From: Nocardioides albidus
GTDB lineage: Bacteria > Actinomycetota > Actinomycetes > Propionibacteriales > Nocardioidaceae
Assembly: GCF_006335005.1 (NCBI RefSeq)
Contig: NZ_VDMP01000021.1
Coordinates: 24,089 to 88,088, forward strand
Length of the DNA: 64,000 nucleotides
Direction: 5' to 3'
Positions 29,966 through 51,537 of this stretch are shown here, one piece after another (the first letter of the stretch is position 1; every line of letters begins with the position of its first letter). Below the pieces are notes generated by a model that was not told where the DNA came from, searched no databases, and saw only the letters and a list, made by a program, of their open reading frames with translations. A program made the translations under genes and the position numbers.

Positions 29966-29982
29966 GATCAGTAGTACCAGGG
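29966..29982. repeat. 17-bp direct repeat, left copy (att-like)
   Basis: GATCAGTAGTACCAGGG, 4 bases after the pyc stop, recurs exactly at 33408-33424. The 70 bases after it, up to GACCTGCGGAAAC at 30036-30048, are also related to the sequence after the right copy. This has the look of an integration site beside a housekeeping gene. The rest of the gap to 30149 (GCGATTCTCCTGCCACGC around 30090) is related to 33341-33370. Confidence 0.75.
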
Positions 29983-30148
29983 AAAGCGTGGCACGCTCAG
30001 CGGGTGTTGGTGGGCATCGACGGCACTGTGCCGCTGACCTGCGGAAACGTGATTGGCGGCGTTGGCCGTCGACGGCCACAAGCGATTCTCCTGCCACGCT
30101 CTTGCTACGCACGCGGGCGGCCCATCCGGCGTCACTACCCTGTTCATC

Positions 30149-30850
30149 ATGCCCGTGCCGAAGGTCGTCGACTCCTTCCGCGCGTGCGTCGCGTTCAAGT
30201 CTCTCCAGACGCGCTGGGCGATCAAGAGCCGCTGGCGGCGACTGCGCGGTCACCATGGCGCGTTCAAGCATGGTGAGGTCAGCGGCCGCGCCGCTCACCT
30301 CACCGATCTGTGGGATCGGACCTGGCCCGTGGCCAGTCCCCTCGGCTACGAACTGCGGGGTGCGTACAGCGACCGATGGGTCCGGTTCCACAGCCTCCCC
30401 GAGCCGAAGCGGTACGCCGACAGTGACGCTGGGTGCGCCGAGATCCTCCGACGCCATCGCACGGTCCTTCGAGAACTCCACGGCTCGGCTGACCTGACCG
30501 ACCTCTGGGTGATCGCCGTCGACTGGGGCTCGGATGACCTCGCCGCCGGGTGGTCGAAAGGCCGCCTGCCGTCGGCCTGGCCCTGGCAGAGGCGGCAAGC
30601 CGAGGATGACCCCGACGCCGCCTTCAACTACTTCTGGGCCTCGTCCGGTTTGGCGGACGCCAGTATCGACTCTCTGTTGCTCGCGGCCGCCGACGACGAG
30701 GGCCGTTTCGTCATCGGGGCTCCCGATCTTGAGTGGCTCTACTGCCCGTACGACGGCGGAGCCGACGTTCTACTCCCGAGCGCCGTCGAGCGCGACGCGC
30801 TCATGAAGCGCCACGCCGACTGGCTGTCGGCGCATCCTCAGGGACTCTGA
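30149..30850 (+). CDS. DUF3885-like hypothetical protein
   Basis: 233 aa from ATG 30149; the frame is open further upstream into repeat sequence, so the start is uncertain. RFHSLPEPKRYADSDAGCAE followed by an invariant-looking LRRHRTVLREL matches the DUF3885 pattern. C-terminal half: DAAFNYFWASSGLADASIDS, DLEWLYCPYDGGADVLLPS and ERDALMKRHADWLSAHPQGL. No enzyme motif is visible. DUF3885-like proteins are often found in accessory or polymorphic-toxin surroundings as possible immunity proteins; that role is inference. A broken paralogue of the C-terminus lies at 32405-32541. Confidence 0.65.
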   Translation: MPVPKVVDSFRACVAFKSLQTRWAIKSRWRRLRGHHGAFKHGEVSGRAAHLTDLWDRTWPVASPLGYELRGAYSDRWVRFHSLPEPKRYADSDAGCAEILRRHRTVLRELHGSADLTDLWVIAVDWGSDDLAAGWSKGRLPSAWPWQRRQAEDDPDAAFNYFWASSGLADASIDSLLLAAADDEGRFVIGAPDLEWLYCPYDGGADVLLPSAVERDALMKRHADWLSAHPQGL

Positions 30851-30913
30851 CCTGTGACCGATGGCGGAGCTCCGAGGAAGAGCGTCCCGTCGCAGAGCTG
30901 ACCGAGCAACACT

Positions 30914-30977
30914 GTCCCTTTGTCTCTTAATAAGTGACAAAGGGACGCCTGCGCCCGTAGACTTGACACTTAATAAA
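30914..30977 (+). promoter_or_regulatory. Palindromic control region of the Fic gene
   Basis: GTCCCTTTGTC (30914-30924) and GACAAAGGGAC (30936-30946) are exact reverse complements; between them CTTAATAAG (30926-30934) is itself palindromic, giving a 33-nt near-perfect palindrome. A related half, CTTAATAAAGGAC, starts at 30969, just after TTGACA (30963-30968). The whole region is strikingly A+T-rich for this genome. It is most simply an operator, and repeated CTTAATAA(G/A) suggests two binding sites. Confidence 0.75.
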
Positions 30978-30989
30978 GGACATACGGAC

Positions 30990-32147
30990 ATGACTTCCCT
31001 CTTCGCCACCCCAGACCCGGATCTCGAAGACCAGCAGGCCATCGGGGAGATCCACGAAACGCGCGCATCGCTCGCGGACTACCTACGCGCACCCAAACGC
31101 TGGAACGGACTGCTCCGACGCACCTCCACAGCGCGCGCTATCCAGGGCTCCAACACCATCGAGGGCTACACCGTGAGCGAGGAGGACGCCGTCGCGGCCG
31201 TCGATGACGAGCCTCCGCTGAGCGCCGACGACGCGACCTGGCTCGAGATCATCGCCTACCGCCGGGTCCTCACCTACGTCCTCAACGTGGCAACGGAGCC
31301 AGGCTTCGTGATCGACGAGGCTGTCCTCCGGTCGATGCACTTCATGCTGCTCGATCACGACCTGTCCAAGACACCCGGTCGCTACCGCACCAAGGAGATC
31401 TTCGTCCGCGACGACAAGCGCGGCGTCAACGTCTACGCAGGTCCGGACGGCGATCTGGTACCGGAGTTGATGCGTTCGCTGTCCGAGTCGCTGTCGACGC
31501 CCACAGCCGACGATCCGTTGGTGCGCGGGGCGATGGCCCACCTGAACCTCGTCATGATCCACCCCTTCCGCGACGGAAACGGGCGCATGGCCCGCGCCCT
31601 CCAGACGATGGTGCTCGCACAGGACCAAGTGGTCGAGCCGACCTTCTCCAGCATTGAGGAGTGGCTCGGCAACAACACCCAAGACTATTACGACGTCCTT
31701 GCAGCGACCGGGCACGGTGCTTGGAACCCTGGAAACGATGCGACGCTTTGGGTGAAGTTCAACCTGCGGGCGCATCACATGCAGGCTCAGACGATGCGCC
31801 GCCGATTCGACGAGGCCGAGATCCAGTGGCGCAAGATCGACGAACTGGTCGCAGAGCACCGCCTCAACGACAGGATCGGCGCAGCGCTCTTCGATGCATT
31901 GATCGGGTTGCGCGTGACACGGCCGTCCTACGTGAAGCTCACCGAGTTGGACGAACGGACCGCCACACGAGACTTGGTCAGCGCCGCCAACATCGGCCTC
32001 CTGGAAGCACGAGGCGAGCGGCGCGGTCGCCACTACGTCGCCGGCGAACCGCTCCGGCGGATCCAAGCCGCGCTGAGGGCGGACCGCAAGCCCTTGGACG
32101 ATCCCTATCCGACACTCATCGGCGAGATCCGGCGAGCGCGGCCGTGA
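30990..32147 (+). CDS. Fic-family protein (AMPylator type)
   Basis: 385 aa. The catalytic Fic loop HPFRDGNGRMAR (His191) is complete, so transfer of AMP or a related group onto a target protein is expected. SNTIEG at 54-59 matches the (S/T)xxxE(G/N) inhibitory-helix motif of class II Fic proteins, in which Glu58 self-inhibits the enzyme. The C-terminal 100 residues (VTRPSYVKLTELDERTATRD onward) look like a winged helix, as in DNA-binding Fic proteins. ATG 30990 follows AAAGGA by 9 nt; an upstream in-frame extension would run through the palindrome and is rejected. Confidence 0.9.
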   Translation: MTSLFATPDPDLEDQQAIGEIHETRASLADYLRAPKRWNGLLRRTSTARAIQGSNTIEGYTVSEEDAVAAVDDEPPLSADDATWLEIIAYRRVLTYVLNVATEPGFVIDEAVLRSMHFMLLDHDLSKTPGRYRTKEIFVRDDKRGVNVYAGPDGDLVPELMRSLSESLSTPTADDPLVRGAMAHLNLVMIHPFRDGNGRMARALQTMVLAQDQVVEPTFSSIEEWLGNNTQDYYDVLAATGHGAWNPGNDATLWVKFNLRAHHMQAQTMRRRFDEAEIQWRKIDELVAEHRLNDRIGAALFDALIGLRVTRPSYVKLTELDERTATRDLVSAANIGLLEARGERRGRHYVAGEPLRRIQAALRADRKPLDDPYPTLIGEIRRARP

Positions 32148-32156
32148 AGACACCGT

Positions 32157-32417
32157 CTAACAACCCCGTAGGGACAGCTGCCCATCGAAATCATCGGCGT
32201 CCGGTTGACGGGGTGTGTTTCCGATTAGGAAGCCGTCGACCCAGCGCGTGGCGTCCGGCAGCGCGTCCGACATTTCGCTCTTGGAGACTCTGAAGCTCGC
32301 CTGATCCGTCTGGCACCAGGCGGCTATCCGGCCCGGGAAGGTCCGCCATTGCTCACACAGGACGTAGTCGCGTTCGCCCGGGTGATTGCGACATTCGAAC
32401 CAAAGTGGCTCTTCCAA
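32157..32417 (-). CDS. Small hypothetical ORF
   Basis: 86 aa reading frame (MEEPLWFECRNHPGERDYVL at the start) between the Fic gene and the broken DUF3885 copy. No family is recognised, no ribosome binding site stands out and its start overlaps the relic on the other strand, so it may be a gene fragment or chance. It is listed because nothing else explains 32148-32404. Confidence 0.25.
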   Translation of the reverse strand: MEEPLWFECRNHPGERDYVLCEQWRTFPGRIAAWCQTDQASFRVSKSEMSDALPDATRWVDGFLIGNTPRQPDADDFDGQLSLRGC

Positions 32418-32541
32418 AGCTCGAATGGCTCTACTGCCCTTACGGGTGGGCCCCGACGTTGTCCCTCAAAGTGCGTTCGAGCGCGACGCCCTCAAGGCTC
32501 GTCATGCCGGCTGGTTGTCTTCGTACCCAGGCGGTCTCTGA
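32405..32541 (+). pseudogene. DUF3885-like gene fragment (C-terminus)
   Basis: VALPKLEWLYCPY, then after a frameshift PDVVPQSAFERDALKARHAG and WLSSYPGGL with a TGA at 32539-32541. This aligns residue for residue with the last 45 residues of the intact gene at 30149-30850 (DLEWLYCPY, ADVLLPSAVERDALMKRHAD, WLSAHPQGL). The front of the gene is missing. It is a duplicate or the remains of a second immunity-like gene. Confidence 0.75.
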
Positions 32542-32560
32542 CGATGACACTGCGGCATGC

Positions 32561-33060
32561 ACCAGCCTCGATGCGCTGCACGAACTCGTCGACCCAGGCC
32601 ACGGCGGCACCCACGTCAGGCAGTACGTCCATGTCCTCGATCACGGTCTCATACAGCGTGTCCCAACCGGCACCAGACTCGATGGTCGGCGGCCATGGTT
32701 TCTGGCGCCGGTAGTCGAAGAGCTGGATGCACGTGGCCTTGACCTGCGCGAGGTCGAGGTCTGCGCCCTTGTCGAGCAACTGAAGGTCGACGAGGTCGCG
32801 CACTCGCGCGCTGCCAGGCGGCCGAGACCGCATGCAGATTCTGGACGACCTGGTGATCGGCATGCATCACCGGCCCCGGCTTGGGCGCCTTCGAGACCGA
32901 CCTCGGTGAAGAGCTGCACCAAGCCGCCGGCGAGTTGGTACTCCGGCTCCTCGAAGTCGCTATGGAACCGAGCCAACGGCTGCACGCGAGCAGCGTGGAG
33001 ATCCTGGGTGAGTTCACAGTTGAGCGAACGGCGGGTGCGGCCCAGACCAATGTCAGAGCC
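32561..33060 (-). pseudogene. AbiEii-type nucleotidyltransferase toxin relic
   Basis: Three reading frames must be joined: SDIGLGRTRRSLN with VQPLARFHSDFEEPEYQLAG and LVQLFTEVGLE; then PKPGPVMHADHQVVQNLHAV; then RVRDLVDLQLLDKGADLDLA, IQLFDYRRQKPWPP and AVAWVDEFVQRIEAG. Together they resemble the C-terminal half of AbiEii/AbiGii toxins (the RxRDLVDLQLL and LFxxRxxxxWPP stretches). At least two frameshifts and loss of the N-terminal nucleotidyltransferase core make it non-functional. No AbiEi antitoxin gene is visible. Confidence 0.7.
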
Positions 33061-33075
33061 GCACTCGTCAGTGAC

Positions 33076-33294
33076 TCAAGATTCAATGCCCCGGTTCTTC
33101 AGGTACCGGGCGGCCACGATCACACCTGTCAGTGAACCAAGAACCACCATGCTCCAGCGAAGTGCTGGGCTGTGATTCAGCCAACCCAGCTGAGCGGCGA
33201 GCGCGATCAAGCCGGCCACCAACGCACCGCTCAGCATGCCTGCTGCAACCGATTCCAGTTGAAGTCGCCATTTCTGACGAGGCTGCCTATCCAC
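33076..33294 (-). CDS. Possible small two-helix membrane protein
   Basis: 72 aa from GTG 33294: a charged start (DRQPRQKWRLQLES) and two hydrophobic segments, AAGMLSGALVAGLIALAAQL and WSMVVLGSLTGVIVAARYL, ending KNRGIES. The GTG overlaps the stop of an upstream open frame (CTAGTGG), suggesting past translational coupling. No family is recognised. It sits among relics and may not be expressed. Confidence 0.35.
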   Translation of the reverse strand: MDRQPRQKWRLQLESVAAGMLSGALVAGLIALAAQLGWLNHSPALRWSMVVLGSLTGVIVAARYLKNRGIES

Positions 33295-33335
33295 TAGCGC
33301 CACTTGAGGACGAGCTTGGGCTCCGTCGAACCGTC

Positions 33336-33500
33336 CGCGGGCGATTCTTGCCACGCATCTGCCACGCATGAGGCCCGAACATGCCTCTGACCTGCACAAA
33401 CGCGCCAGATCAGTAGTACCAGGGGGACGATTCGAGGGGTTCTTGGGCCTTGGTGACTGACACTGGACATGACCGGAAACTCTGTCTGACCTGCGCAAAC
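33336..33500. repeat. Right att-like module with 17-bp direct repeat
   Basis: Contains GATTCTTGCCACGC and a second CTGCCACGC (33342-33370), GACCTGCACAAAC (33389-33401), the exact 17-bp repeat GATCAGTAGTACCAGGG (33408-33424) and GACCTGCGCAAAC (33488-33500). The 93 bases from the 17-mer to the second GACCTG element correspond to 29966-30048. With the left copy it brackets 3.4 kb that includes the Fic gene and relics. No integrase gene survives nearby. The rest of the gap to 33761 shows no gene I can support. Confidence 0.65.
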
Positions 33501-33761
33501 ACGCCCGCCCGTTCGTTGATCGTCGATGGCCAGCAGTGGTCGTTCCGGGACCTTCTGCGGACTATCTGCGGACCGCAGGCGGCTGGTCGTCGTCGCGCCC
33601 TCGTTAGTACCAATGCCGCGGAACGAAGCAGTGAGAACACCTTTGGGCGAGGTCACCAGACTTCCGGAACGTGGACTACGCGGGTCCTTCTGATCCGCAT
33701 GGCTCTGCTGGAGCGTCCGGCGCCGACGACCATCATATGCGTTTCACCTGACCACCGAAGG

Positions 33762-33950
33762 TCAGGGACGTCCCCAGAACCGGTCCTCGGCTACGCCGTT
33801 CTCGGAGAACAGGTGCACCTCGACGATCTTGCCGTCACGGACAGTAAGCAGGTCCACTCCGGTCATGTCCATCGACGCCCCATCGCGGCGGCCGGTGAAG
33901 CGCACAGGCACAGCAACCAGCTCGCCGTTGACCATGGCCGGGCCCGTCAC
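33762..33950 (-). pseudogene. SnoaL/NTF2-like protein fragment
   Basis: The last 60 residues of a SnoaL-like (NTF2-fold) protein: GPAMVNGELVAVPVRFTGRR, MTGVDLLTVRDGKIVEVHLF and the typical ending AEDRFWGRP. The N-terminal half is gone: upstream of residue one the sequence turns abruptly into an HxlR-type regulator on the opposite strand. The open frame continues to 34190 but without SnoaL similarity. Confidence 0.7.
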
Positions 33951-34235
33951 CGCGAGCTGGAAGCTCCTCTGGCTGGACGACGGGCCGCTTCGGTTCGGCG
34001 CGCTCCGCGAGAGAGTCGACGGCATCAGCGGCAAGGTCCTCACCGAGACCCTGCGCGACCTCGAGCGCGACGGGACCTCACCCGCACTATGTACAACGAG
34101 ATGCCACTCCGCGTGGAGTACGAACTCACCGCCCTCGGCCAGACCCTGCGCAAGCCCCTCGCCGCGCTCGGGCAATGGGCCGAAGAGCACATCGAGACAG
34201 TCCTACGCGCCCGCGACGAATACGACAGCCGCTGA
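33946..34235 (+). pseudogene. HxlR-family regulator fragment, frameshifted
   Basis: WKLLWLDDGPLRFGALRERV, DGISGKVLTETLRDLERDG in one frame, then after a frameshift near 34074-34080 LTRTMYNEMPLRVEYELTAL, GQTLRKPLAALGQWAEEH to a TGA at 34235. This is the HxlR winged-helix pattern (GPLRFxxL, GISxKxLTxTLRxLExDG, VEYxLTxLG). The N-terminus is missing at the junction with the SnoaL-like fragment. The two were probably a divergent regulator/target pair before a deletion. Confidence 0.75.
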
Positions 34236-34762
34236 AGACTGCAATCTGTGCGCCGCGGTGAGCACGCCCTCGATCCAGCGATTCAGTGTCCTCACGAGAT
34301 AGCCATAGGCGGAGACAATCAGGCCCGGCTCGAGCTAAGTCATCCTCCAGCGAGAAGCGAGACGGCCTTGTCGGGGGACAATTCGAGGGCCTTCTGGGGC
34401 TTGACGACTGCCGCTGACGGTGATTAGAAAACACGGCCAGACCTGCGCGAACACTGCATGCCGGCCGATGATGGTTGATGGTGAAAATTCGTGGTCCCGT
34501 GACGACCATCTGCCGACTGCCGGCTCGCCCCGGTCGCGTGTCGGCGCCGCCCGCCGGGAGCGATTTCCGCTCCCGGCGACCCGCCTCTCCGACTCCGGGT
34601 GGGCCGGCCAGGCCAATGCGACGCCAGGAAGGAGCGCTCTACCTTCTGAGGCGAGCACGAGCTCGGTTGCCACTGCCTCTGTCGTGGGCGACGCCACAGG
34701 CGTCCGCCCACGACGACCACCATGTTGCTTGGCGGCACTCGTGGACCCGCAGGGTCCGCTCT
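34236..34762. other. Gene-free stretch with third att-like module copy
   Basis: No convincing gene on either strand. 34373-34487 aligns with 33422-33530: GGGGGACAATTCGAGGG matches GGGGGACGATTCGAGGG, and GACCTGCGCGAAC (34440-34452) matches GACCTGCGCAAAC; the 17-bp repeat itself is not conserved. The overall identity is moderate by eye. 34500-34762 shows nothing I can identify. Confidence 0.5.
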
Positions 34763-35398
34763 TCAGCCGGCGAAGGAGGCGCGGCCCTGCATGGCGGAAG
34801 TGCCGAGGTCACTCTTGGGCAGCGCGGCTCCAGCGGCGACGGCCTCCGCCCAGGCTTTGGTGCTGGCGACCGCTGCGAAGTTGGAGTGCAGCAGCACGAG
34901 CAGGGCCTGGTGCAGCTCGTCGGCGGAGACCTTGCCCGCCTCGTTGGCCAGGTGGATCGCACCGCTCGCATCAGAGAGGATCTCCGCAGCCAGGCCGAGC
35001 TCCTCGGCGCCCACCGCTGTGGCGATGTCGCAGTTGTTGGTCATAAAGCCGACGATGGTGATGGTGTCGACCTCCTGCTCGAGCAGCCATGCGGCGACGT
35101 CGGTGCCAGCGAAGACGCTGCCCTTGTCCTTGGTCACCCGCTTCCAGGAGGGCTTCAGGCGCCGCTCGATCTCGGGGCGCAACGACCAGCTGTGACTTCC
35201 GACGGCGAAGACCGGCGCGCCCTCGGGCAGCTCGTGCTGGACGACGACCACGGGCATGTCCTGGCGCTCCGCGGTATCGAGCGCGGCCAGGATGTTGGCA
35301 AGAGACTGCTCGCGTGACGGGGACTGGATCTGGAGGATGCCGTCGAAGTACTCCTGCTGGACGTCGACGACGATCAGCGCGCGGCGGGGCGTGGACAC
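34763..35398 (-). CDS. Isochorismatase-family cysteine hydrolase
   Basis: 211 aa from GTG 35398 (AGGAG 8 nt upstream); the frame is open beyond but overlaps the divergent gene. The catalytic Asp (VVDVQQEYF), Lys (in TKDKGSVF) and nucleophile Cys (GFMTNNCDIATA) of the isochorismatase-like hydrolase superfamily are all present. Members cleave isochorismate, nicotinamide, N-carbamoyl compounds and similar amides. It is divergent from a GlxA-type regulator, which probably controls it. Confidence 0.88.
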   Translation of the reverse strand: MSTPRRALIVVDVQQEYFDGILQIQSPSREQSLANILAALDTAERQDMPVVVVQHELPEGAPVFAVGSHSWSLRPEIERRLKPSWKRVTKDKGSVFAGTDVAAWLLEQEVDTITIVGFMTNNCDIATAVGAEELGLAAEILSDASGAIHLANEAGKVSADELHQALLVLLHSNFAAVASTKAWAEAVAAGAALPKSDLGTSAMQGRASFAG

Positions 35399-35504
35399 AG
35401 AGACTCTCCTGCTTAGGTGGGTGGGGCCTTCCCCTCCACTCTGGTCGCTGCGAGGCGGTACCGTGAGTGGCACGAAAGACGACCTTCGATGAGATCGGGC
35501 CACA

Positions 35505-36458
35505 ATGCGCATCGTCGTGCACGCCTTCGACGGCATAACCATGTTCCACCTTGCCGCTCCGCTGCTGGTTTTCGGCGAGGTCAGCCGCCTCGGTCTGGCC
35601 GAAGGATGGACTCCCGTCGTGTGGACCGAGGACGGGCACGGCATCCGGACCGCCGAGGGGCTCCGGGTCGAAGCCGTCGCAGGACCCGACGTCGTCGAGG
35701 ACGCCGACCTCGTGGTGATGCCGTCGTGGCCGAGCGACCTCCCGCCAACCGACGCGGTCCTGGCCGACAGGATCCGCGCCGCGCAGGCGCGGGGCAGCCA
35801 CATCGCAGGGCTGTGCCTCGGAGCCTTCCCCGTCGTGGACAGCGGGGTCCTCGACGGAAGGGATGTCGTCACCCACTGGGGCGCGGTCGAAGAGCTCGCC
35901 AAGCGACGCCCGGATGTGACCGTCACGCCGGCAGCGCTCTATCGGGACCACGGCGACGTCCTCACATCCGCCGGCACGGCGTCGGCAATCGACGCGTGTT
36001 TGTCGATCGTGCGCTCGCAGCTCGGATCGACCGCGGCAGCCACCGTCGCTCGCCATCTCGTCGTCGCGCCCCAGCGCGAAGGCGACCAGGCTCAGTACGT
36101 CGACCGCCCCATACCGGCGGCGGGGGGCGTGGGCGACCTCGGAACCACAATCGACTGGGCCCTCGCCCACCTCGATGAGCGACTCTCGGTCGACGACCTG
36201 GCAGCCCACGCCCGGATGAGCCGGCGCAACTTCACGCGCCGATTCGCGGAGGTCACCGGCACAACACCAGCACGATGGGTCCTCACTCGTCGTCTCGACG
36301 AAGCTCGCCGCCTCCTCGAGACGACGACCTGGCCGATCTCCCGCATCGCAGAAGAGTGCGGCTTCAGCAGCGTCGTGACCTTCCGGCAGAACTTCACTAC
36401 AGCGTTCGCGACGACGCCGACTTCCTATCGACGGCGATTCGCGCCAGCTGGACCATAG
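35505..36458 (+). CDS. GlxA-family AraC-type regulator
   Basis: 317 aa with an N-terminal DJ-1/PfpI-like domain (about 1-170; nucleophile-elbow-like GLCLGAFPV) and a C-terminal AraC double helix-turn-helix (about 215-317; LSVDDLAAHARMSRRNFTRR and ISRIAEECGFSSVVTFRQNF). The GlxA type often controls amine or amino-acid-derived compound breakdown. The 106-bp gap to the divergent isochorismatase-like gene should hold both promoters; no repeat stands out. Confidence 0.92.
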   Translation: MRIVVHAFDGITMFHLAAPLLVFGEVSRLGLAEGWTPVVWTEDGHGIRTAEGLRVEAVAGPDVVEDADLVVMPSWPSDLPPTDAVLADRIRAAQARGSHIAGLCLGAFPVVDSGVLDGRDVVTHWGAVEELAKRRPDVTVTPAALYRDHGDVLTSAGTASAIDACLSIVRSQLGSTAAATVARHLVVAPQREGDQAQYVDRPIPAAGGVGDLGTTIDWALAHLDERLSVDDLAAHARMSRRNFTRRFAEVTGTTPARWVLTRRLDEARRLLETTTWPISRIAEECGFSSVVTFRQNFTTAFATTPTSYRRRFAPAGP

Positions 36459-36616
36459 GCGTCACCGGTTGCGAGCCGCGCCAGTCCTCCGCGAGGCAGC
36501 ACGTCGAAGTCTCCGATCAGCAGCCCGACCAGAGCAGGAGTCGCGCGACGATCTCGTCCAACGAGACCTGGCATGGCCGGTCTACGACGTCTCCATCAGA
36601 GGCGCCGCGCGGAGCC

Positions 36617-36633
36617 GAGGATGACTCATCCTC
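36617..36633. other. Perfect 8-bp palindrome between convergent genes
   Basis: GAGGATGA-C-TCATCCTC lies in the 210-bp gap between the convergent glxA-like gene and cbtA. With a one-base centre it would be a poor hairpin, so it may be a protein site or part of a weak terminator. The rest of the gap (36459-36668) shows no gene. Confidence 0.5.
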
Positions 36634-36668
36634 CGATTTGACGACGGGCGCACGGCGTCGCCTCCAGC

Positions 36669-37466
36669 TCATCGACCCCGAGCCATCAAGCTCACCGACT
36701 CACGCTCTCGTTCGCGATGCAGCAACACGCCATGAACGATCCCCATCGTCGTCCACAGGGCGGCCGTCTGCACCAGCGATCCGACACGGAAGTCCCAGAC
36801 GAGATCAGCAGGAATTACCGAAGGCACTCGCTCCTCGACGTGCGGCACCGAAAAGACGACCAAGGCGCCGATCGCGACCGCCGCTGCAGTCAGGAGCCAG
36901 CGCCCCTCCGGCGCGATGCCCCTGTCGACCGCTGCCCGATGGAGCGCGAATACGACTCCGACGAAGAGCACGCCGACCAAGATGATCAACAGATATATCA
37001 GCGTCCGCCGGCCCACGGTGTCCGAGCTGCCGATCCCGGGCGGATTAGCCGGCACCATCACGCTCGGCACGGCAGCGACGACGGTGAACGCCAGCGCCGC
37101 GAGGCTCAGCGCCCTTCCCAGATCCGTCTCCTCAGAGAAGCGGTGCTGCACACGCGCGTAGATCACGGCGAATGCAAGTCCGAGGAGCACGCCAACGACG
37201 AGAACGGTGATCGTGCCCCCGATCTGCTGCTGCAGGCGCGTCACCGTGGCGCCGTGTTCGTGAGCACCCCCGGCCTCGTGCCGGCCGTGCATCTCCTCCT
37301 CGAGCAGGATGGCTCGGCCGATGACCGGTTCGACCATCAGCCAGAGGACCACGACAGACGCTAGGCCGCCCGCTGCTCCCGCGACCGCACCACACCTGAG
37401 GCGCAGCCCCCAGGACGTCGCAGCCACGGTGTCAGTCGCACGGCACGCCGAGTGCATGCCGTCCAT
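36669..37466 (-). CDS. cbtA: CbtA-type cobalt transporter subunit
   Basis: 265 aa membrane protein with about six helices and a His/Glu-rich loop after the first helix (EEEMHGRHEAGGAHEHG), matching the CbtA family predicted to take up cobalt. Its start lies 35 bases inside cbtB. It is the last gene of the nitrile hydratase operon; that hydratase is of the cobalt type, so this gene pair most likely feeds Co to its maturation rather than only to cobalamin synthesis. Confidence 0.88.
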   Translation of the reverse strand: MDGMHSACRATDTVAATSWGLRLRCGAVAGAAGGLASVVVLWLMVEPVIGRAILLEEEMHGRHEAGGAHEHGATVTRLQQQIGGTITVLVVGVLLGLAFAVIYARVQHRFSEETDLGRALSLAALAFTVVAAVPSVMVPANPPGIGSSDTVGRRTLIYLLIILVGVLFVGVVFALHRAAVDRGIAPEGRWLLTAAAVAIGALVVFSVPHVEERVPSVIPADLVWDFRVGSLVQTAALWTTMGIVHGVLLHRERERESVSLMARGR

Positions 37467-37635
37467 CGTGCGTGACCTCGTGCAGCCACGAGCCCATCTC
37501 GGCAGAGAGGAGAGAGTCGTTCCCCTGGAGGATCAAGAACACGGCAAGCAGCGCCACGGCCGCGAGTGCCGAGGCCCAGAGCGGCACGGCCGACGAGGTG
37601 GGACGATGGGCGAGGGGGGTGGATTCGATGTTCAC
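37432..37635 (-). CDS. cbtB: CbtB-type cobalt transporter subunit
   Basis: 67 aa with one membrane helix (about 18-37) and the C-terminal signature LHEVTHDGRHALGVPCD, the CbtB HDGRHxLGxPC motif. GTG 37635 overlaps the stop of the hydratase accessory gene (GTGA) and follows GGAGG. It pairs with cbtA. Confidence 0.9.
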   Translation of the reverse strand: MNIESTPLAHRPTSSAVPLWASALAAVALLAVFLILQGNDSLLSAEMGSWLHEVTHDGRHALGVPCD

Positions 37636-38069
37636 GGTGCCTCCGGGATCGACGTCGTCCTCGCGGGGTCGACGGCGATCGGCTCGTAATGCGGTTCGTG
37701 ATGGTTGCGGTTCTTGGGGGTGGCGAGGACGTCGCAGGTGCGGACCTCCACAGCGTCGCGATCGACCGTCCCCCGCTCGCCCAGCACCGCCTCGAACGCC
37801 CGGACCCAGTGCTCGTAGTACGACCATGGGGCACGCGTGGCGGCGGGGGATTCTTCCCACTGCCGGATGGAGGCGATCAGGGCCTGCTGGAACTCGCCCC
37901 AGGGATAGCCACCGGCCTCGTAGGCGGCGACGACGAGGGCGAAGGCGCGCAGCTCCCACGGCTCGTCGAAGGCGAGGTCGCCGGAGCGACCCGGGAGATC
38001 GCCGACAAGTGTGTCCAGCCCGCGCCGCAGCTCCGCCGTCAGCTCGGCGCCCGCCACCGGGGTCGTCAC
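37632..38069 (-). CDS. Nitrile hydratase accessory protein
   Basis: 145 aa. [20 protein letters not shown] and [13 protein letters not shown] match the small accessory/activator proteins that resemble the N-terminal part of the hydratase beta subunit and help insert cobalt. GTG 38069 overlaps the alpha-subunit stop (GTGA), so translation is coupled. The C-terminal end is [20 protein letters not shown]. Confidence 0.85.
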
Positions 38070-38665
38070 GAGACCGCCCCGACGGGAGCGACGCCGATCA
38101 TCGAGTCGCGGGTGACCAACGTGGCGAGCTGCTCCTCCGACCACCCGTCCGTGCCGGCCGGACGCTGGGGCAGCACCCAGTAGCGGATCTCGGAGCTGGA
38201 GTCCCAGACGCGGATCTCCCTGGTATCGGGGATCTCGTAGCCGAAGTCCTCGGCCAGCACCTTGCGCGGCGCGCGGACCATGCGGGAGCGGTACTGCGGC
38301 TCCTTGTACCAGTTGGGCGGCAGGCCGAGGACGGGCCACGGGTAGCAGGAGCACAGGGTGCAGACGACGGCGTGGTGCACCTCGTCGCTGTCCTCGAGGA
38401 CCACCATGTGCTCGCCCTGGCCACCTCCGATGCCGAGCTCGGCGCAGGCCGCGGTCGCATCCTGGAGGAGTCGGGCCTTGAACTCCGGGTCGGCCCAGGC
38501 CTTGGCGACCACCTTCGCGCCGAGTTGGGGCCCGACCTCGTTCTCGTAGATGTCGACATAGCGGTCGACCATCTCGGTGGTCAGCAGTCCCTGCTCGATG
38601 AGCATGGACTCCAGCGCCTTCACCCGCGCCGCGATCTCCTCGGACGTACGGTCGGCTTCACTCAC
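38066..38665 (-). CDS. nthA: Nitrile hydratase alpha subunit, cobalt type
   Basis: 199 aa metal-binding subunit; the enzyme hydrates nitriles to amides. The metal-site motif is Val-Cys102-Thr-Leu-Cys105-Ser-Cys107; Thr in this position is the mark of cobalt (rather than iron) hydratases. Gene order is beta then alpha, the usual cobalt-type order. GTG 38665 lies 8 bases within the beta gene; the accessory gene overlaps its end. Confidence 0.95.
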
Positions 38666-39368
38666 GCTCTGCTCCTTCGCTCTCTCGCACCATCTCGATG
38701 TAGGGCTCCCAGACGTCGAAGGTCGAGGAGGTCCGCGGGTCGGCGTACTCCTCGCCCCACAGCTCGGCACCGCTGAGCTGGATCGTGTACAGGTGCTGCG
38801 GATCCTCGCCACGCTCGTTGCCCGCGGAGTCGGGGAACACGAAGGACCCGCGGTACGCCACCACCGTGCCGACCTTGCCACGCACGTAGCGGGCCATCCG
38901 GGTGTGACCGAGAGGAGCCACGCTGCGGACGCGCACGACGTCGCCCACGCGGAAGCCGACCGGCGCGTCGGTCGGCCGCGTGGCGGGCGCACCATGGGTG
39001 GACAGCGCCTCGACGACCGCGATCAGCTCCGGCTTCGGGTCATGGCGCGGGAGCGGCGCGTGCGGGTCGTCCAGGAATGCCTGGGTACGACGATCCAGCT
39101 CGGCCGGATCGATCATGCCCTTCGTGATCCCGTGGTGCTCCAACGAGTGGAGCCAGTGCTCGTAGTACGACGTACTCAGGTAGGTCACCGGATCCATCTG
39201 TTCGATGCCGTGCCGGAAGGAGTCCAGTCCGCACCAGCCGCCGATCATGCAGGACAGCTGCATCGTGAAGACCGCTCGCTCCCAGTCATGGGTGAACGCC
39301 GGCTCCTCGGGCGGCGCCTCGATCCGCCCGAGACCGTCGGTCCCGCCGAGGTCGAACACTCCGTTCAT
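38658..39368 (-). CDS. nthB: Nitrile hydratase beta subunit
   Basis: 236 aa, starting [17 protein letters not shown] as in other beta subunits. It has the conserved [14 protein letters not shown] segment and the C-terminal SH3-like region with GDVVRVRS and [15 protein letters not shown]. The ATG overlaps the amidase stop (ATGA). It forms the alpha-beta heterodimer with the next gene product. Confidence 0.95.
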
Positions 39369-40906
39369 GACGCAACCTCCACTCGGTCGGGGCGCGGGAA
39401 TCCACCCACCTCGGTCTCGAAAGCATGGGCGACGCGCAGCACGGTGGCGTCATCGAACCGCCTCCCGACGATCATCATCCCGACCGGCAGTCCCCCGACC
39501 AGGCCTGCGGGCACCGAGCAGGCGGGGTGCCCGGTGATGTCGAAGGGGGCGGTGTTGGTGAGCATCTCGGTGCCTCGGGCGAGGACCTCGAGCACGCCCG
39601 CGTCCGGCTCCGGAAGCGGGGTCGCCCGCATCGGCGTCGTGGGCATCACCAGGACGTCGTGATGGCGCAACGCCTCGTCGTAGGCGGCAGTGAGCTGCCG
39701 CTCCAGATTGCGCGCCATCGCATAGTGGCGTCCGTGTCCATTGTCGCGGGCATGGCGGCCGGCCAGCATCGTCATCTGGAGCGACTCCGAGAACGCGGAC
39801 GGATCCGCCCGCCGCCGGGCACCGTAGTGCGCCATCAGATCGGGGTCGTAGCGACCCTTCCAACCGAAGCCGAAGGTGTTGCCCTCGACGAGCTGGGCGA
39901 GCCCGCCCTCGAACGCGATCACGCTGAACAGGGCCGGCGCGGTGGCGTGCCAGGGAACCGACACCTCCTCCACGACCATGCCGGCCGACCGGAGGCTCTC
40001 GACAGCAGCGCGGACCGCGTCGTCGACCTCGCCCTCCGAGTTGGCGTGACCGAACCCCTCGGTGACCACCCCGACCCGCAGGCCGGCCGCACCTCTTCCG
40101 AGGAGCGTCGCGTAGTCGAACGGCTCCATCGAGGACGGCTGACGTGGGTCGAGCCCGTCCGGACCGGCGATGACCGCGAGCATCTGAGCGGCCTCGGTCA
40201 CCGTCCGCGCGGTCGGCCCCAGGTGGTCCAGGCTCGGCTCGACCGGCACCGCGCCGGTGTAGGGCACCAGACCCCAGGTGGGCTTGTGACCGACGATGCC
40301 CAGCCACGACGCGGGGATGCGGATGGAGCCGCCCTGGTCGCCCGACAGGCCCAGGTCGGCCTCACCGGTCGCGACGAGCACGCCGCTGCCGCTGGAGGAT
40401 CCGCCGGCCGCCCGGCTCGGATCCCACGGATTGCGCACCGGACCGCTCTTGCTGGTGTGGGATCCCCCGGACATGCAGAGGTCCTCGCACACGGACTTGC
40501 CGACGATCACGGCACCGGCCGCCAGCAGCCGCGACACCACGGTCGCGTCCTCACGAGGGACGAAGTCCTCGAGCATCTTCGAGCCGTCCATCATCGGTAC
40601 GCCGGCGACACTGGTGTTGTCCTTGATCACGACGCGCCGGCCGGCCAGCGGACCGTCGGCGCGGTCCTGGATCTCGGTCCGGACGTACCAGGCACCCCAG
40701 GGGTTGTCCGGGTCGTCGGGCCGCGACCACGCGCGCTCAGGAACCGCCGGCGCGTGCTGTGCGTAGAGCGACTCGACGAGGTCCCAGGCCGCCATGGAGT
40801 CCTCCGCCACGGCGCGATAGCACTCCAGGTCCGCTGGTGAGATCTCGAGGCCGTAGCCTGCGGCGATCCGCTCGAGAGCCGATGTGGTGGGCCGATCGAT
40901 GGGCAC
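39365..40906 (-). CDS. Amidase (amidase signature family)
   Basis: 513 aa from GTG 40906, preceded by AGGAGGG; upstream in-frame residues are not protein-like. The Ser-cisSer-Lys triad is visible: Lys95 (VVIKDNTSV), cis-Ser171 in GGSSSGSG and Ser194 in SGDQGGSIRIPAS. It hydrolyses the amide made by the nitrile hydratase to acid and ammonia. It is the first gene of the overlapping chain amidase-nthB-nthA-accessory-cbtB-cbtA. Confidence 0.94.
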   Translation of the reverse strand: MPIDRPTTSALERIAAGYGLEISPADLECYRAVAEDSMAAWDLVESLYAQHAPAVPERAWSRPDDPDNPWGAWYVRTEIQDRADGPLAGRRVVIKDNTSVAGVPMMDGSKMLEDFVPREDATVVSRLLAAGAVIVGKSVCEDLCMSGGSHTSKSGPVRNPWDPSRAAGGSSSGSGVLVATGEADLGLSGDQGGSIRIPASWLGIVGHKPTWGLVPYTGAVPVEPSLDHLGPTARTVTEAAQMLAVIAGPDGLDPRQPSSMEPFDYATLLGRGAAGLRVGVVTEGFGHANSEGEVDDAVRAAVESLRSAGMVVEEVSVPWHATAPALFSVIAFEGGLAQLVEGNTFGFGWKGRYDPDLMAHYGARRRADPSAFSESLQMTMLAGRHARDNGHGRHYAMARNLERQLTAAYDEALRHHDVLVMPTTPMRATPLPEPDAGVLEVLARGTEMLTNTAPFDITGHPACSVPAGLVGGLPVGMMIVGRRFDDATVLRVAHAFETEVGGFPRPDRVEVAS

Positions 40907-41049
40907 GTGCCCTCCTTCATCCTGACGGGTTCGTCGATGCTGACGGGCCCGCCGCGGTCGTGGCAACAGAGGGAGCGCAGAGTCGGACCCCCACCCTTGT
41001 CGGAATCCTCAAGGCACCGTGGCCGCCGACTGTGGTGGACGCAGCACGG

Positions 41050-42195
41050 TCACAGACCGAGGTCGCGACCGATCAGCTCCTTCATGATCTCGTTCGAGCC
41101 GGCCCAGATCTTGGTGACCCGGGCGTCGCGCCAGGCACGGGCCACGCGGTACTCGTTCATGAACCCGTATCCACCGTGCAACTGCACGCAGTGGTCGAGG
41201 ACCTCGGACTGCGCTTGGGCAGACCACCACTTCGCCTTGGCCGCATCGATGGCGGTGAGCTCGCCGTGCACGTGCGCCATCACGCACTTGTCGACGTACG
41301 CCTCGGCGACCTCGATCTGGGTGAAGAGCTCAGCCAGCAGGAACTTGTTGTGCTGGAAGGATCCGATCGGCTGTCCGAACGCCTGGCGCTCCTTGGTGTA
41401 CTCCAGCGTCTCGATCAAGATCTGCTTGGCGTGCGCCACGTTGTTGATGGCGGAGCCGAGCCGTTCCTGCGGCAGCCACTGCATCATGTGGATGAAGCCC
41501 TGGTCGAGCTCGCCGATGACCTCGGCGTCGGTGACCCGGACGTTGTCGAAGAACAGCTCGGCGGTGTCGGACTCGTCCTGACCCACCTTGTCGAGCTTGC
41601 GCCCGCGGGAGAACCCCTCCTTCGAGGTCTCCACCGCGAAGAGCGAGATTCCGCGCGCCTTCTTCTCGGGACTGGTCTTCGCCGCGACCAGGACGAGGTC
41701 GGCGGAGTAGCCGTTGGTGATGAACGTCTTGGAGCCGTTGATGACCCACTCGTCGCCGTCCCGCACCGCCGTCGTCTTCAACGCTGCCAGGTCGGACCCT
41801 CCGCCCGGCTCCGTCATGCCGATCGCGGAGAGGATCTCTCCGGACGCCATGCCGGGGAGCCACCGCTGCTTCTGCTCCTCGGTGCCCAGCTCGACGAAGT
41901 AGGGCGGCACCGTGTCGCAGTGGATCCCGAAGCAGCTGTTGAGGGCGGCGAGGACCTTCGCGGTCTCCTCTCCGAGCACCGCGGCGAACCGGAAGTCCTC
42001 GGCACCGCTGCCGCCGTACTCCTCCGGGATGCCGAGGCCGAGAAGGCCCTGCTCACCGGCTGCGAGCCACATCTCGCGCGGGAAGGCCTTGTCCTCCGCG
42101 TAGGAGTCGAGGTTGGGGATGACCGAGCGCTCCATGAACTCCCGGACGGACTTCCGGAACGCCTCGTGATCACCGTCGTAGATCTCGCGTCTCAC
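41050..42195 (-). CDS. Acyl-CoA dehydrogenase (copy 2)
   Basis: 381 aa, same length as and very similar throughout to the gene at 6541-7686 (for example QLHGGYGFMNEYRVARAWRD and GSNEIMKELIGRDLGL identical). It has the flavin motif MTEPGGGSDLAALKTTAV. Here it sits between the aldehyde dehydrogenase (49 bases upstream) and the amidase (143 bases downstream), so this copy probably serves the nitrile/amide-derived acid after CoA activation. Confidence 0.93.
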   Translation of the reverse strand: MRREIYDGDHEAFRKSVREFMERSVIPNLDSYAEDKAFPREMWLAAGEQGLLGLGIPEEYGGSGAEDFRFAAVLGEETAKVLAALNSCFGIHCDTVPPYFVELGTEEQKQRWLPGMASGEILSAIGMTEPGGGSDLAALKTTAVRDGDEWVINGSKTFITNGYSADLVLVAAKTSPEKKARGISLFAVETSKEGFSRGRKLDKVGQDESDTAELFFDNVRVTDAEVIGELDQGFIHMMQWLPQERLGSAINNVAHAKQILIETLEYTKERQAFGQPIGSFQHNKFLLAELFTQIEVAEAYVDKCVMAHVHGELTAIDAAKAKWWSAQAQSEVLDHCVQLHGGYGFMNEYRVARAWRDARVTKIWAGSNEIMKELIGRDLGL

Positions 42196-42244
42196 GTGCT
42201 GCTGCCTTGCCTCTCGTCATGCGGTCAGTCGGCGTTCCGAACGA

Positions 42245-43588
42245 TCAACGGACGATCCTGACCATCTTCTTGTTGAGGAACTCCTCGATGCCGAGACGGC
42301 CGAGCTCACGGCCGAAGCCCGATCGCTTCACACCACCGAAGGGCATCTCGGGTCCCATCGCGTTGACGCCGTTGATGAAGACCATGCCGGTCTCCAGCCG
42401 GCTCGCCACCCTGCGTGCCTGCTCGGGGTCGGTCGTGAAGATGTACGAGCCGAGTCCGTAGTCGGTGTCATTGGCGACACGGATCGCCTCTGCCTCGTCG
42501 TGGACCTTGAACACCATGGCGACCGGTCCGAAGAGCTCGTCCCGGGCGATGTTGCTGCCCTCGACGCCCGTGAGCACACCGGGGGCGAACCAGGCGCCTC
42601 CCTGCTCCTCGGCGCCGGCGAGCGTCGCGCCGTCAGCGACAGCTTGCGACACCTGCTGCTCCAGCCGCTCCGCCGCAGCCAGGGAGGACAGCGGCGCCGC
42701 AGGTATCGCCGTCATCCGGGCACTGAACTTCGCCACGAACTCGTCGTACAGGTCCTCGTGGACGATCATCCGCTTGCCCGCGTTGCACGCCTGCCCGGCG
42801 TTCCCGACGCGAGCGATCACCGCGGCCTCGACCGTGGCGTCCAGGTCGTCGCTGCTGAGCACGATGAACGGGTCGGAGCCACCGAGCTCGAGGACGACCT
42901 TCTTCAGGTGCCGGCCGGCGATCTCCGCGACTGCCGCGCCCGCCCGCTCCGATCCGGTCAGCGACACGCCCTGGACGCGGCGGTCGGCGATCACGGCCTC
43001 GATCTGGGCGTTCGTCGCGTAGATGTTGTTGTACGCCCCGGCCGGGAAGCCGGCGTCGGCGAAGAGCGCGGCCAGCGCGGCGGCGGACTCCGGGCACTGG
43101 GGGGCGTGCTTGAGGACGATCGTGTTGCCGGCCACCAGGTTCGGCGCGGCGAAGCGGGCGACCTGGTAGACGGGGAAGTTCCACGGCATGATGCCGAGCA
43201 GCACCCCGAGCGGCTGCCGCTGGATGAGCGCGGATCCGCCGCCCCACTGCACCGGGATCTCCTCGTCGGCGAGGAAGGCCTCTGCGTTCGCCGCGTAGTA
43301 GGCGAAGATGCTGGCGCTGAAGTCGACCTCCATGAGCGCCTGGTCGAGTGGCTTGCCCATCTCGCGGCTGATGATGGCCGCGAGCTCGTCCCGCCGCTCC
43401 GCGTGGAGCTCTGCCGCGCGCTGCGTGCACTTCGCCCGGTCGCTGACGGCGGCGTCGCGCGCCCACGTCTCGTAGGCCTCGGCCGCGTTCGCCACGGCCA
43501 CCATCACCTCGTCGTCGGTGGCCGTCGGATAGGCGCGGACCTCCTCGCCCGTCGCGGGGTCGACCACGGCATAGCGCTGCTCAGACAT
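42245..43588 (-). CDS. Aldehyde dehydrogenase (succinate-semialdehyde type)
   Basis: 447 aa NAD(P)-dependent aldehyde dehydrogenase. It has MPWNFPVYQVARFAAPNLVA, the catalytic Glu in LELGGSDPF and catalytic Cys in GNAGQACNAGKR. The short GabD-like class fits. Odd: after KFSARMTAIP the usual GDPxDxxxDxGP turn is lacking and the chain resumes at APLSSLAAAERLEQQV, an apparent loss of about ten residues in a surface region. GGAGAGATGG precedes the ATG. An AGTGCACT palindrome lies about 100 bp upstream. Confidence 0.9.
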   Translation of the reverse strand: MSEQRYAVVDPATGEEVRAYPTATDDEVMVAVANAAEAYETWARDAAVSDRAKCTQRAAELHAERRDELAAIISREMGKPLDQALMEVDFSASIFAYYAANAEAFLADEEIPVQWGGGSALIQRQPLGVLLGIMPWNFPVYQVARFAAPNLVAGNTIVLKHAPQCPESAAALAALFADAGFPAGAYNNIYATNAQIEAVIADRRVQGVSLTGSERAGAAVAEIAGRHLKKVVLELGGSDPFIVLSSDDLDATVEAAVIARVGNAGQACNAGKRMIVHEDLYDEFVAKFSARMTAIPAAPLSSLAAAERLEQQVSQAVADGATLAGAEEQGGAWFAPGVLTGVEGSNIARDELFGPVAMVFKVHDEAEAIRVANDTDYGLGSYIFTTDPEQARRVASRLETGMVFINGVNAMGPEMPFGGVKRSGFGRELGRLGIEEFLNKKMVRIVR

Positions 43589-43688
43589 CCATCTCTCCGT
43601 TCGTGAGGGCCGAGGGCCGCTGATGCCAGCGAGTCGCGCTGCGGCGGGGGCGTCGAGGTCGTCGCGGACACGATCGTACGCCCTCAAC

Positions 43689-43704
43689 TGAAAGTGCACT
43701 CTCA
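43689..43704. promoter_or_regulatory. Shared palindromic operator, site 1
   Basis: TGAAAGTGCACTCTCA, 101 bp before the aldehyde dehydrogenase start. The arms TGA-x-AGTG/CACT-x-TCA are symmetrical. Nearly the same sequence precedes the flavin monooxygenase (46727-46742) and the flavin reductase (60972-60987). Confidence 0.8.
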
Positions 43705-43770
43705 CTCTAGATCGGAGGGGGAGCGGCGGCAAGGGTCTCGGCGAGATTTGTCGCCGTGCTGCCCGAGCGG

Positions 43771-44562
43771 TCAGAGCTGTCGTGAGCGAAGGGCCTGCGT
43801 CACCGTTGGCGATGGTGTCACCGATCGCTGGGTGCGGGCATCGAAGAACACCAGGGTGGAACTCCCCCGAGCGAAGGCCGTGTCCCCGTGCGCCACGACG
43901 GAGTCGATGGTCATCGACCGATTGCCGATGCGGGACACCCAGCTCCACACGTCCAGCGCCACCGACTGCGCGAGGTCCGGCCGGTGGAAGTCGACGTCCT
44001 TGTGAGCCACCACGGTGGAGGTGGGCTCGAGATCCATCTGCGCCATCAATGCGATCCGCGCCTCCTGCAGGTACTCGAAGACCGCCGTGTCGGCAACCAC
44101 GCCCTGCGGAGACAGGTCGGCGAAGCGTACGGCGGCCGCCGAGTGGTGGGCCCGCTCGACCAGGTTCGGATCCAGAGCTGGTGCCCGACCGCGTCCCTGC
44201 CCAGGTGAGGGCCCGAGGACGACCCTCGATCGGGCAAGCACACGCTGCTCGCCGGGAGCGTCCTCGAAGAGCTCGGCCAGGACCACCGGCTCGCCCTGGG
44301 TCGCGTCGAGCCAGGCGCGGGTCGCGACGGTCGAGCCGGTGCCGAACATCAGCGGACTCAGGTAGCTGATCTCCTGACGTCGAACCGCCCACGGATGCTC
44401 GCCGACCGCGTCGGCACGGGCATTGAGGAGACGGTGGTGCGCGTCCTCGAAGTAGGCGGCGTACGCGACGTTGTTGACGTGCCCCAGCTCGTCGACGTCG
44501 GCCCATCGGAGCTGGACCTCGCATCGGATCACCGATCCATCTCCTCGCAGCGGCCACTCCAT
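43771..44562 (-). CDS. Tandem hotdog acyl-CoA thioesterase-like protein
   Basis: 263 aa from ATG 44562, preceded by GGAGG; a longer in-frame start exists but overlaps the neighbouring promoter. Two hotdog (4HBT) units: about 10-120 with WADVDELGHVNNVAYAAYFE, and about 135-260 with FADLSPQGVVADTAVFEYLQ, the acyl-CoA thioesterase pattern. It may release or balance acyl-CoA intermediates. Divergent from a TetR gene 62 bases away. Confidence 0.85.
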   Translation of the reverse strand: MEWPLRGDGSVIRCEVQLRWADVDELGHVNNVAYAAYFEDAHHRLLNARADAVGEHPWAVRRQEISYLSPLMFGTGSTVATRAWLDATQGEPVVLAELFEDAPGEQRVLARSRVVLGPSPGQGRGRAPALDPNLVERAHHSAAAVRFADLSPQGVVADTAVFEYLQEARIALMAQMDLEPTSTVVAHKDVDFHRPDLAQSVALDVWSWVSRIGNRSMTIDSVVAHGDTAFARGSSTLVFFDARTQRSVTPSPTVTQALRSRQL

Positions 44563-44624
44563 CACTCCCCACCTCCCCGGAGGTGCTCCTCTAGACTGCC
44601 GCGCAGACCGAAGGAGAGGTGCGC

Positions 44625-45305
44625 GTGGCATCGGACACTCCCCCGCAGCTGGGTCTGCGGGAGCGCAAGAAGCGGGAAGCGATGGCGCGGATGCGCGCCG
44701 CAGCCCGCGATCTGATGTGGGACCGCGGCTACGACGCCGTGACGACCAAGGAGATCGCCGCTCGCGCCGACGTCGGGGAGGCGACGCTGTTCCGCTACTT
44801 CCCCTCGAAGCTCGACCTGTTCCTGATGGTCTACGGCGAGGAGTTCGAGCGGGTCATCGACGCCTGCGCCGCGCAGGAGGCTGAGAACCATACGACGCCC
44901 TCCCGCGACGCCGGGGCCTACGTCGACCGCATCCTGGCCTGCTACCGGATGTTCGCCGACCTCTACGTGCGGTATCCGGACCTGGCCTTCACCTATGTGA
45001 AGGAGTCGTTCGGCGCCCACACCGACGTGGCCCAGAGCGGGCTCACCTACGCGGACCGATGGTTCGAGCTCCTCGAGGCGATCGTCGCCCAGGCCCAGGC
45101 CGCGCGGGCATTCGCCGGCATCGACCCGGCGATCATCGTGCAGAACTGTCATGCGCTCTACGTCCACGAGGTGCTCCGCTCCCACGCTCGCGGCCTCTCG
45201 TCGGCGAAGCTGCCGGATCGGCTGGCGCACCGCCTCGAGGCGCTGCTGCGTCCGCTCCAGATCCTGCCCAAGGGGAAGTGGCTCGAGCAGCTGGCGTCGA
45301 TCTGA
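44625..45305 (+). CDS. TetR-family regulator of the catabolic region
   Basis: 226 aa from GTG 44625; GTG 44619 also fits the frame but AAGGAG (44611-44616) is correctly spaced only for 44625. The helix-turn-helix reads VTTKEIAARADVGEATLFRYFPSK. It is surrounded by the aldehyde dehydrogenase, thioesterase and flavin monooxygenase genes, two of which carry the AGTGCACT palindrome; it is the best candidate to bind that site, but no copy lies at its own promoter. Confidence 0.9.
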   Translation: MASDTPPQLGLRERKKREAMARMRAAARDLMWDRGYDAVTTKEIAARADVGEATLFRYFPSKLDLFLMVYGEEFERVIDACAAQEAENHTTPSRDAGAYVDRILACYRMFADLYVRYPDLAFTYVKESFGAHTDVAQSGLTYADRWFELLEAIVAQAQAARAFAGIDPAIIVQNCHALYVHEVLRSHARGLSSAKLPDRLAHRLEALLRPLQILPKGKWLEQLASI

Positions 45306-45310
45306 GCCGA

Positions 45311-46690: not shown

Positions 46691-46726
46691 TCGTGACTCC
46701 TGAACTGTCGAGACGCTTCACTTCGA

Positions 46727-46742: not shown

Positions 46743-46796
46743 GTTTCTCATGTCAGCGAGCAAAGCGGAAGCGTCGACCGAGGAGTCCTTCCTGGA

Positions 46797-51500: not shown

Positions 51501-51537
51501 CGGGGCTTCTTCGTGGGCGACATCGTGGCGTGTTCCG

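What the first reader, a model, noticed from the sequence alone, without database searches (positions are those of the whole stretch)
29966..33424. 3.4-kb segment bracketed by a perfect 17-bp direct repeat next to pyc
GATCAGTAGTACCAGGG begins 4 bases after the pyc stop and recurs at 33408. Between the copies are accessory-type genes only (DUF3885-like, Fic) and relics (second DUF3885 end, AbiEii). This is the expected footprint of an integrated element that has lost its integrase.
Basis: partly seen in the sequence, partly recalled or inferred. Interest (0 to 1): 0.6.

Follow-up and report, generated by a model that had tools for sequence, protein, structure and literature searches.

The report
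Integrase-less mini-island at menB site
The repeat-bounded segment is a small stranded mobile element that uses the end of the menB gene as its landing site, one of a group of tiny toxin- or defence-gene cassettes in soil bacteria that carry no integration enzyme of their own yet seem to have moved between species.

Summary
The repeat is real and the segment is an integrated element without an integrase, but the site is not pyc. The shared core, TCAGTAGTACCAGGG, is the 3' end of menB (minus strand...PWYY-stop). Genome G000 (Nocardioides) has three cores: window 29968, 33410, and 85420 (beyond the window), where it ends the real menB. They delimit two tandem elements: A (29968-33424, the reported segment) and B (33410-85434, about 52 kb), which has relaxase and integrase beside menB. 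Of 215 genus genomes, 182 have the exact core and 24 have two or more.

A has conserved ends (about 150 bp left, 84 bp right, two TGCCACG-type repeats each) and no detectable integrase or relaxase. Seven other integrase-free elements at menB, 1.1-3.6 kb, share these ends (one has a decayed right end) around toxin-antitoxin, Fic or AbiE cargo. A's DUF3885-Fic pair recurs as a 2.4-kb element at menB in a distant host: Fic 93% identical, five neighbouring chromosomal proteins 54-64%. A's right half is the relic of a second mini-element.

Best filing: a CIME-type element (att ends kept, integration and transfer genes lost) accreted with an IME-like element; new variant of a known kind. Mobilisation is inferred, not shown.

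The parts
29968..29982 (+). core 1 (left attachment core of A), copy of the menB 3' end
29966..30116 (+). conserved left end of A (core, CTGACCTGCGGAAAC motif, two TGCCACG-type arm repeats, one with a mismatch)
   Evidence: matches 27 places in 26 of 215 genus genomes; alignment of 13 left ends; repeats counted
30149..30850 (+). DUF3885 gene (233 aa)
   Evidence: PF13021 E 4.1e-36
30914..30946 (.). inverted repeat upstream of fic, possible operator (inference)
   Evidence: 94% complementary 16-nt arms
30990..32147 (+). fic gene (385 aa), Fic motif complete, distant relative of SoFic
   Evidence: PF02661; PADLOC SoFic model E 1.5e-48; below NCBIfam SoFic cut-off
32420..33011 (.). relic of a second mini-element: DUF3885 tail followed by a broken AbiEii gene on the minus strand
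   Evidence: collinear with the G227b element
33341..33424 (+). conserved right end of A including core 2 (two TGCCACG arm repeats)
33410..33424 (+). core 2: right core of A and left core of B
33410..64000 (+). part of element B inside the window (B runs on to core 3 at window coordinate 85420-85434, contig C14:109508-109522, the end of menB)
   Evidence: same element alone at menB in G138
34373..34538 (+). second, decayed copy of B's left end without a core, also present in G138

Best explanation
Element A is a CIME-like mini-element: a short stretch with conserved tyrosine-integrase-type ends and no integration or transfer genes, carrying a DUF3885 gene and a Fic gene plus the relic of a second mini-element. 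It sits at the menB 3' end, accreted with B, an IME-like 52-kb element inserted at the same site between A and menB. Inferred working: a type-1 integrase supplied by a fuller element (as found in G176, G051, G057) binds the TGCCACG arm repeats, exchanges strands in the 15-bp core and so inserts or excises A; the core restores the menB C-terminus, so insertion is harmless. The cargo (Fic here; ParE, PIN, AbiE-type genes in sister elements) probably favours retention or defence. G000 has no type-1 integrase, so A is presumably stranded there now. Shown: site, ends, cargo, absence of integrase, tandem layout, distribution. Inferred: excision, trans-mobilisation, cargo function.
For: Core is the end of menB (24 of 31 loci fetched show it; MenB identified by NCBIfam equivalogs above cut-off). 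Third core and integrase at the real menB. Single-core menB sites in G002, G056, G020, G006. Ends of A align with those of 12 other elements. G127 has the same DUF3885-Fic unit between two cores at menB, 2.4 kb, with no other called gene. Transfer: Fic 93% and DUF3885 87% identical to G127 while five other proteins beside menB are 54-64% (MenB 86%); DUF3885 of G227 and G148, hosts nearer to G000 on the menB tree, is only 70% and 67%. B stands at menB without A in G138. No integrase match at E 0.1 and no relaxase match at E 0.01 in A.
Against: No excision, circle or transfer was observed. fic dS between G000 and G127 (0.78) exceeds menB dS (0.39), DUF3885 is lower (0.24), so transfer is not recent and the three values do not agree. 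Independent integrase losses in the two lineages stay possible; very weak integrase C-terminal matches at the right ends of G234, G112, G127 (E 0.04-0.1) fit descent by deletion. Why pyc is the left neighbour is unexplained: G014 shares aceE-aceF on that side without pyc.
Confidence: 0.87

Rival explanations
1. A is a plain dead remnant: one full type-1 element per lineage decayed in place by deletion, and the other mini-elements are independent decay products kept only because their toxin-antitoxin-like cargo resists loss. Nothing moves without an integrase.
For: Four of the 14 analysed elements keep broken or fragmentary integrases (G222, G195, G050, G044), weak integrase C-terminal matches lie at three more right ends, and cargo is toxin-antitoxin-like, which would bias survival.
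Against: The DUF3885-Fic unit is in two distant hosts in integrase-free form, and a second mini-element type is shared by G227, G234 and G208; 8 of 14 have no integrase match at E 1e-5, and G227 has two such elements in tandem.
Confidence: 0.4
2. A and B were brought in and moved as one composite island, with A carried along in cis by B's integrase.
For: They are in tandem and share the core; the review PMC5704250 reports conjugative transfer of CIME-ICE tandems (passage).
Against: Arms differ between A and B; B occurs at menB in G138 without A; G127's version of A stands without B.
Confidence: 0.15
3. Chance repeat around ancestral chromosomal genes.
For: Bare 17-bp repeats are not rare in this window.
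Against: Both copies equal the end of menB, the ends recur in other genomes, and several relatives have the site without the segment.
Confidence: 0.01

Closest known systems
CIME (cis-mobilizable element), as defined for ICE-related elements
   Same: attL and attR kept, integration and transfer genes absent, tandem with an integrase-bearing element at one gene's 3' end (definition seen in passages of PMC5704250)
   Different: A and its sisters are only 1.1-3.6 kb, share conserved ends around unrelated toxin-antitoxin-type cargo, and mostly stand at the site without an integrase-bearing neighbour; A's arm repeats differ from B's
Dehalococcoides ssrA islands without integration module
   Same: tandem islands bounded by repeats of a gene's 3' end, 15 of them without an integration module (passages of PMC3146451)
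   Different: tmRNA gene and serine recombinase there; here a protein-coding gene, menB, and tyrosine integrases
Actinobacterial integrative elements with tyrosine integrase and TrwC (MobF) relaxase
   Same: B and the full type-1 elements of G176 and G057 have integrase and TrwC relaxase plus a small HTH protein
   Different: site is menB; the survey PMC3218068 says most tyrosine-integrase AICEs sit in tRNA genes, and the word naphthoate does not occur in it (passages)
SoFic (Shewanella oneidensis Fic)
   Same: match along most of the protein to the PADLOC SoFic model and sequence matches to SoFic structures
   Different: far below the NCBIfam SoFic equivalog cut-off (61.7 against 550 bits); carried beside DUF3885 on a mini-element

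Membership tests
CIME | attL and attR kept at both ends | tested here: met
   cores and aligned ends with two arm repeats each; by sequence only, function not tested
CIME | integration genes lost | tested here: met
   no match to two integrases in A at E 0.1; best match to a type-1 integrase in the genome is B's, 60%
CIME | transfer genes lost | tested here: met
   no match to the G176 relaxase in A at E 0.01; other transfer genes not searched
CIME | accreted with an integrase-bearing element at the same site | tested here: met
   A - core 2 - B - core 3/menB; not met for most sister mini-elements seen
CIME | can be mobilised through recombination with the neighbour | not testable with these tools
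   needs excision and mating assays
IME (element B) | own integrase and relaxase, flanked by att cores | tested here: met
IME (element B) | no conjugation machinery of its own | not tested
   only part of B's proteins went to Pfam; the rest seen as ORF calls
SoFic | NCBIfam equivalog cut-off for SoFic | tested here: not met
   61.7 bits against 550
Fic family | Pfam Fic domain above cut-off and motif HPFxxGNGRxxR (motif recalled) | tested here: met
   PF02661 55.4 bits against 24; HPFRDGNGRMAR in the protein printed

The most novel reading that the evidence does not exclude
Nocardioides hosts a family of miniature, integrase-free elements, the tyrosine-integrase counterpart of non-autonomous transposons: about 150 bp and 84 bp of conserved end sequence wrapped around interchangeable toxin-antitoxin, AbiE or Fic cargo, mobilised in trans by fuller type-1 elements and stacking at the end of menB.
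Probability: 0.5. Interest if true: 0.62.

Novelty: new variant of a known kind. Interest (0 to 1): 0.47.

Why it matters
It offers a naturally replicated test, within one genus, of whether elements that have lost their integrase can still spread. It also marks menB, a menaquinone-pathway protein gene, as an integration hotspot: 16 of the 39 Unstab_antitox hits found in 215 Nocardioides genomes lie within 7.2 kb of a copy of the core. Paper searches for this site returned no paper; only open-licence papers are in that library, so prior reports elsewhere are not excluded.

Tried and rejected
Rejected: pyc as the site. A tRNA or known RNA as the site: ARAGORN found none in the window, Rfam none in 24000-40000 at gathering thresholds. 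A simple inversion to explain pyc: genes right of menB are collinear with G002 while pyc alone lies elsewhere and inverted; left unresolved. dS as proof of recent transfer: the values disagree. Integrase read-through as a feature of all these elements: seen in G000, G138 and G188, not in G176 or G203; for the other genomes tried the script returned no row. A SoFic name for the Fic protein: below the equivalog cut-off. Left out of counts: of 27 left-end matches the 14 with E 3.1e-18 or better were analysed and 13 weaker ones were not counted; of the 39 antitoxin hits, six (G204 twice, G223, G214, G230, G242) are in genomes whose core coordinates were not listed, and one (G211) lies 0.4 kb from a left-end fragment but has no exact core; none of these seven is counted as near a core. 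The menB tree used 51 rows, after a duplicate row was dropped.

Full report
Observation. The 17-mer is exact at 29966 and 33408, and these are its only two exact copies in the genome. A repeat of this length is not remarkable by itself: 18 exact direct repeats of at least 17 bp occur in the window, 4 within 10 kb, against shuffle means of 1.4 and 0.4.

What the repeat is. Of 96 genomes searched with up to one mismatch, 37 had a match. In 24 of the 31 loci fetched there the sequence, read on the minus strand, is the end of one conserved gene...EGRDQFLEKREPDWSPYPWYY-stop or close to it. The G000 protein with that end passes the NCBIfam cut-offs for 1,4-dihydroxy-2-naphthoyl-CoA synthase, MenB. 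The exact 15-mer is present in 182 of 215 genus genomes; 24 have two or more copies (counted by eye from the table) and only G000 has three.

The real layout. In G000 the intact menB is on the same contig, 52 kb to the right of the second repeat. Its 3' end is core 3, window coordinate 85420. Before it lie a TrwC relaxase gene, two small HTH-type genes (one scanned: MerR_1 above and HTH_17 just below cut-off) and a tyrosine integrase. The order is pyc, core 1, element A, core 2, element B, core 3/menB. A has TGCCACG-type arm repeats at both ends, B has TGCGGAC repeats at both ends. In G138 the same element B lies at menB without A, in collinear blocks of 84-98% identity. Cores 2 and 3 are therefore B's own limits, and A is a separate element.

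Sites without A. G002, G020, G006 and G056 show one core, at menB, with other sequence to its left and no element ends. The left flank of menB differs among the relatives compared. G014 shares LysR-aceE-aceF with G000 on that side but not pyc. pyc was sought in 24 genomes; in none of the other 23 is it within 25 kb of menB on the same contig, many being on separate contigs, and G034 gave only weak matches.

Element A and its sisters. The left end of A matched 27 places in 26 of 215 genomes. I analysed the 14 best (E 3.1e-18 or better). Integrase: full length in 2 (G057, G176); broken or fragmentary in 4 (G222, G195, G050, G044); no match at E 1e-5 in 8 (A, G127, two in tandem in G227, G234, G208, G112, G186). 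Very weak matches to the integrase C-terminus at the right ends of G234, G112 and G127 (E 0.04-0.1) fit descent from full elements by deletion. The ends are not perfect everywhere: the first G227 element has lost the arm repeats of its right end, G186's left core and the second G227 element's right core each have one mismatch, and G050 has no recognisable right end. G051 has a full type-1 integrase at menB, but its left end was not found. One named record, JAGIBL010000002.1 (L119), holds a further 2.0-kb integrase-free element of this build.

Cargo. The 12 elements without a full-length integrase all have toxin-antitoxin, AbiE or Fic-type genes, on evidence of unequal strength: Pfam matches for A, G112, G234, G186, the second G227 element, G195 and, below cut-off, G050; Unstab_antitox matches for the first G227 element, G208 and, below cut-off, G222; homology to these for G127 and G044. 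G112's antitoxin match is below cut-off and G234's presumed toxin had no Pfam match. In 215 genomes there are 39 Unstab_antitox hits; 16 lie within 7.2 kb of a copy of the core, 15 of them within 1.8 kb; six more could not be placed.

Transfer. A and the G127 element are collinear for 2.2 kb at 86.5% identity, plus the right end at 86.9%. Fic is identical at 359 of 385 residues and DUF3885 at 87%, while five other proteins encoded beside menB are 54-64% identical between these hosts and MenB 86%. The menB tree puts G000 and G127 in different groups of 11 and 20 rows, each with SH-aLRT support of 99 (quick method, single gene). DUF3885 of G227 and G148, hosts close to G000 on that tree, is only 70% and 67% identical. 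Against a recent event, fic dS (0.78) exceeds menB dS (0.39) and DUF3885 dS is 0.24. A second type is shared by the first G227 element, G234 and G208 at 83-88% over stretches of 0.3-0.7 kb, although two large proteins beside menB are 85-87% identical to G000's in G234 and G227 but 52% in G208; G208 and G234 were not compared directly, and the G208 assembly is 70% complete.

A is a fusion. Its right part, 32420-33011, is collinear with the second G227 element, DUF3885 tail then AbiEii, while its left part matches G127. The simplest reading is two tandem mini-elements fused by deletion; this is inference.

Mechanism. Shown: the site, conserved ends, cargo exchange between like ends, lack of integrase in A, and the tandem. 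Inferred: arm recognition by a type-1 integrase, mobilisation in trans, tolerance through a restored menB end, and retention or defence by the cargo. The best match to a type-1 integrase in G000 is B's, at 60%, so A should be immobile there unless B's integrase accepts its arms.

Known context. PMC5704250 (passages) defines CIMEs and describes accretion. PMC3146451 (passages) reports tandem islands without an integration module in Dehalococcoides. PMC3218068 (passages) surveys actinobacterial elements. Searches for menB or naphthoate synthase with attachment-site terms returned no paper, a looser search, listed 8 of 126 papers, none with 'naphthoate synthase'. I file A as a new variant of a known kind; the miniature family is the interesting part.

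Noticed in passing
L035:217-2379 (window coordinates 84217-86379, beyond the window): B's integrase frame has no stop before core 3 and runs on through antisense menB (720 aa); in the joined circle it would end 11 residues after the core (417 aa). Same read-through in G138 and G188. Phage Mx8, whose attP lies in its integrase gene, is recalled as a parallel.
   Followed up: partly
L106 about 16730; L260 reverse strand about 6163: An element with a 412-aa transposase (IS110-like by my reading) is inserted directly after CTGAC of the conserved CTGACCTGC motif, once in a right end (G014) and once in a left end (G192).
   Followed up: partly
window 38066-40906 and 49063-51500: Element B carries nitrile hydratase alpha and beta, an amidase and urease structural genes.
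   Followed up: partly
window 30914-30946: Near-perfect inverted repeat between DUF3885 and fic, possibly an operator of fic.
   Followed up: no
contigs around the core in G054, G129, G106, G184, G201: Unstab_antitox genes lie 0.3-1.0 kb from the single exact core in these genomes; perhaps remnants of the same family.
   Followed up: no
window 26575-29961: pyc directly follows aceF in G000; G014 has aceE-aceF on the same side of menB without pyc, and G034 has no full-length pyc match.
   Followed up: partly
L042 reverse strand 9055-11379 (G028): The same Fic gene (333 of 385 residues identical) sits at menB between cores with B-type (TGCGGAC) arms and an integrase fragment, so cargo crosses between the two end types.
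   Followed up: partly
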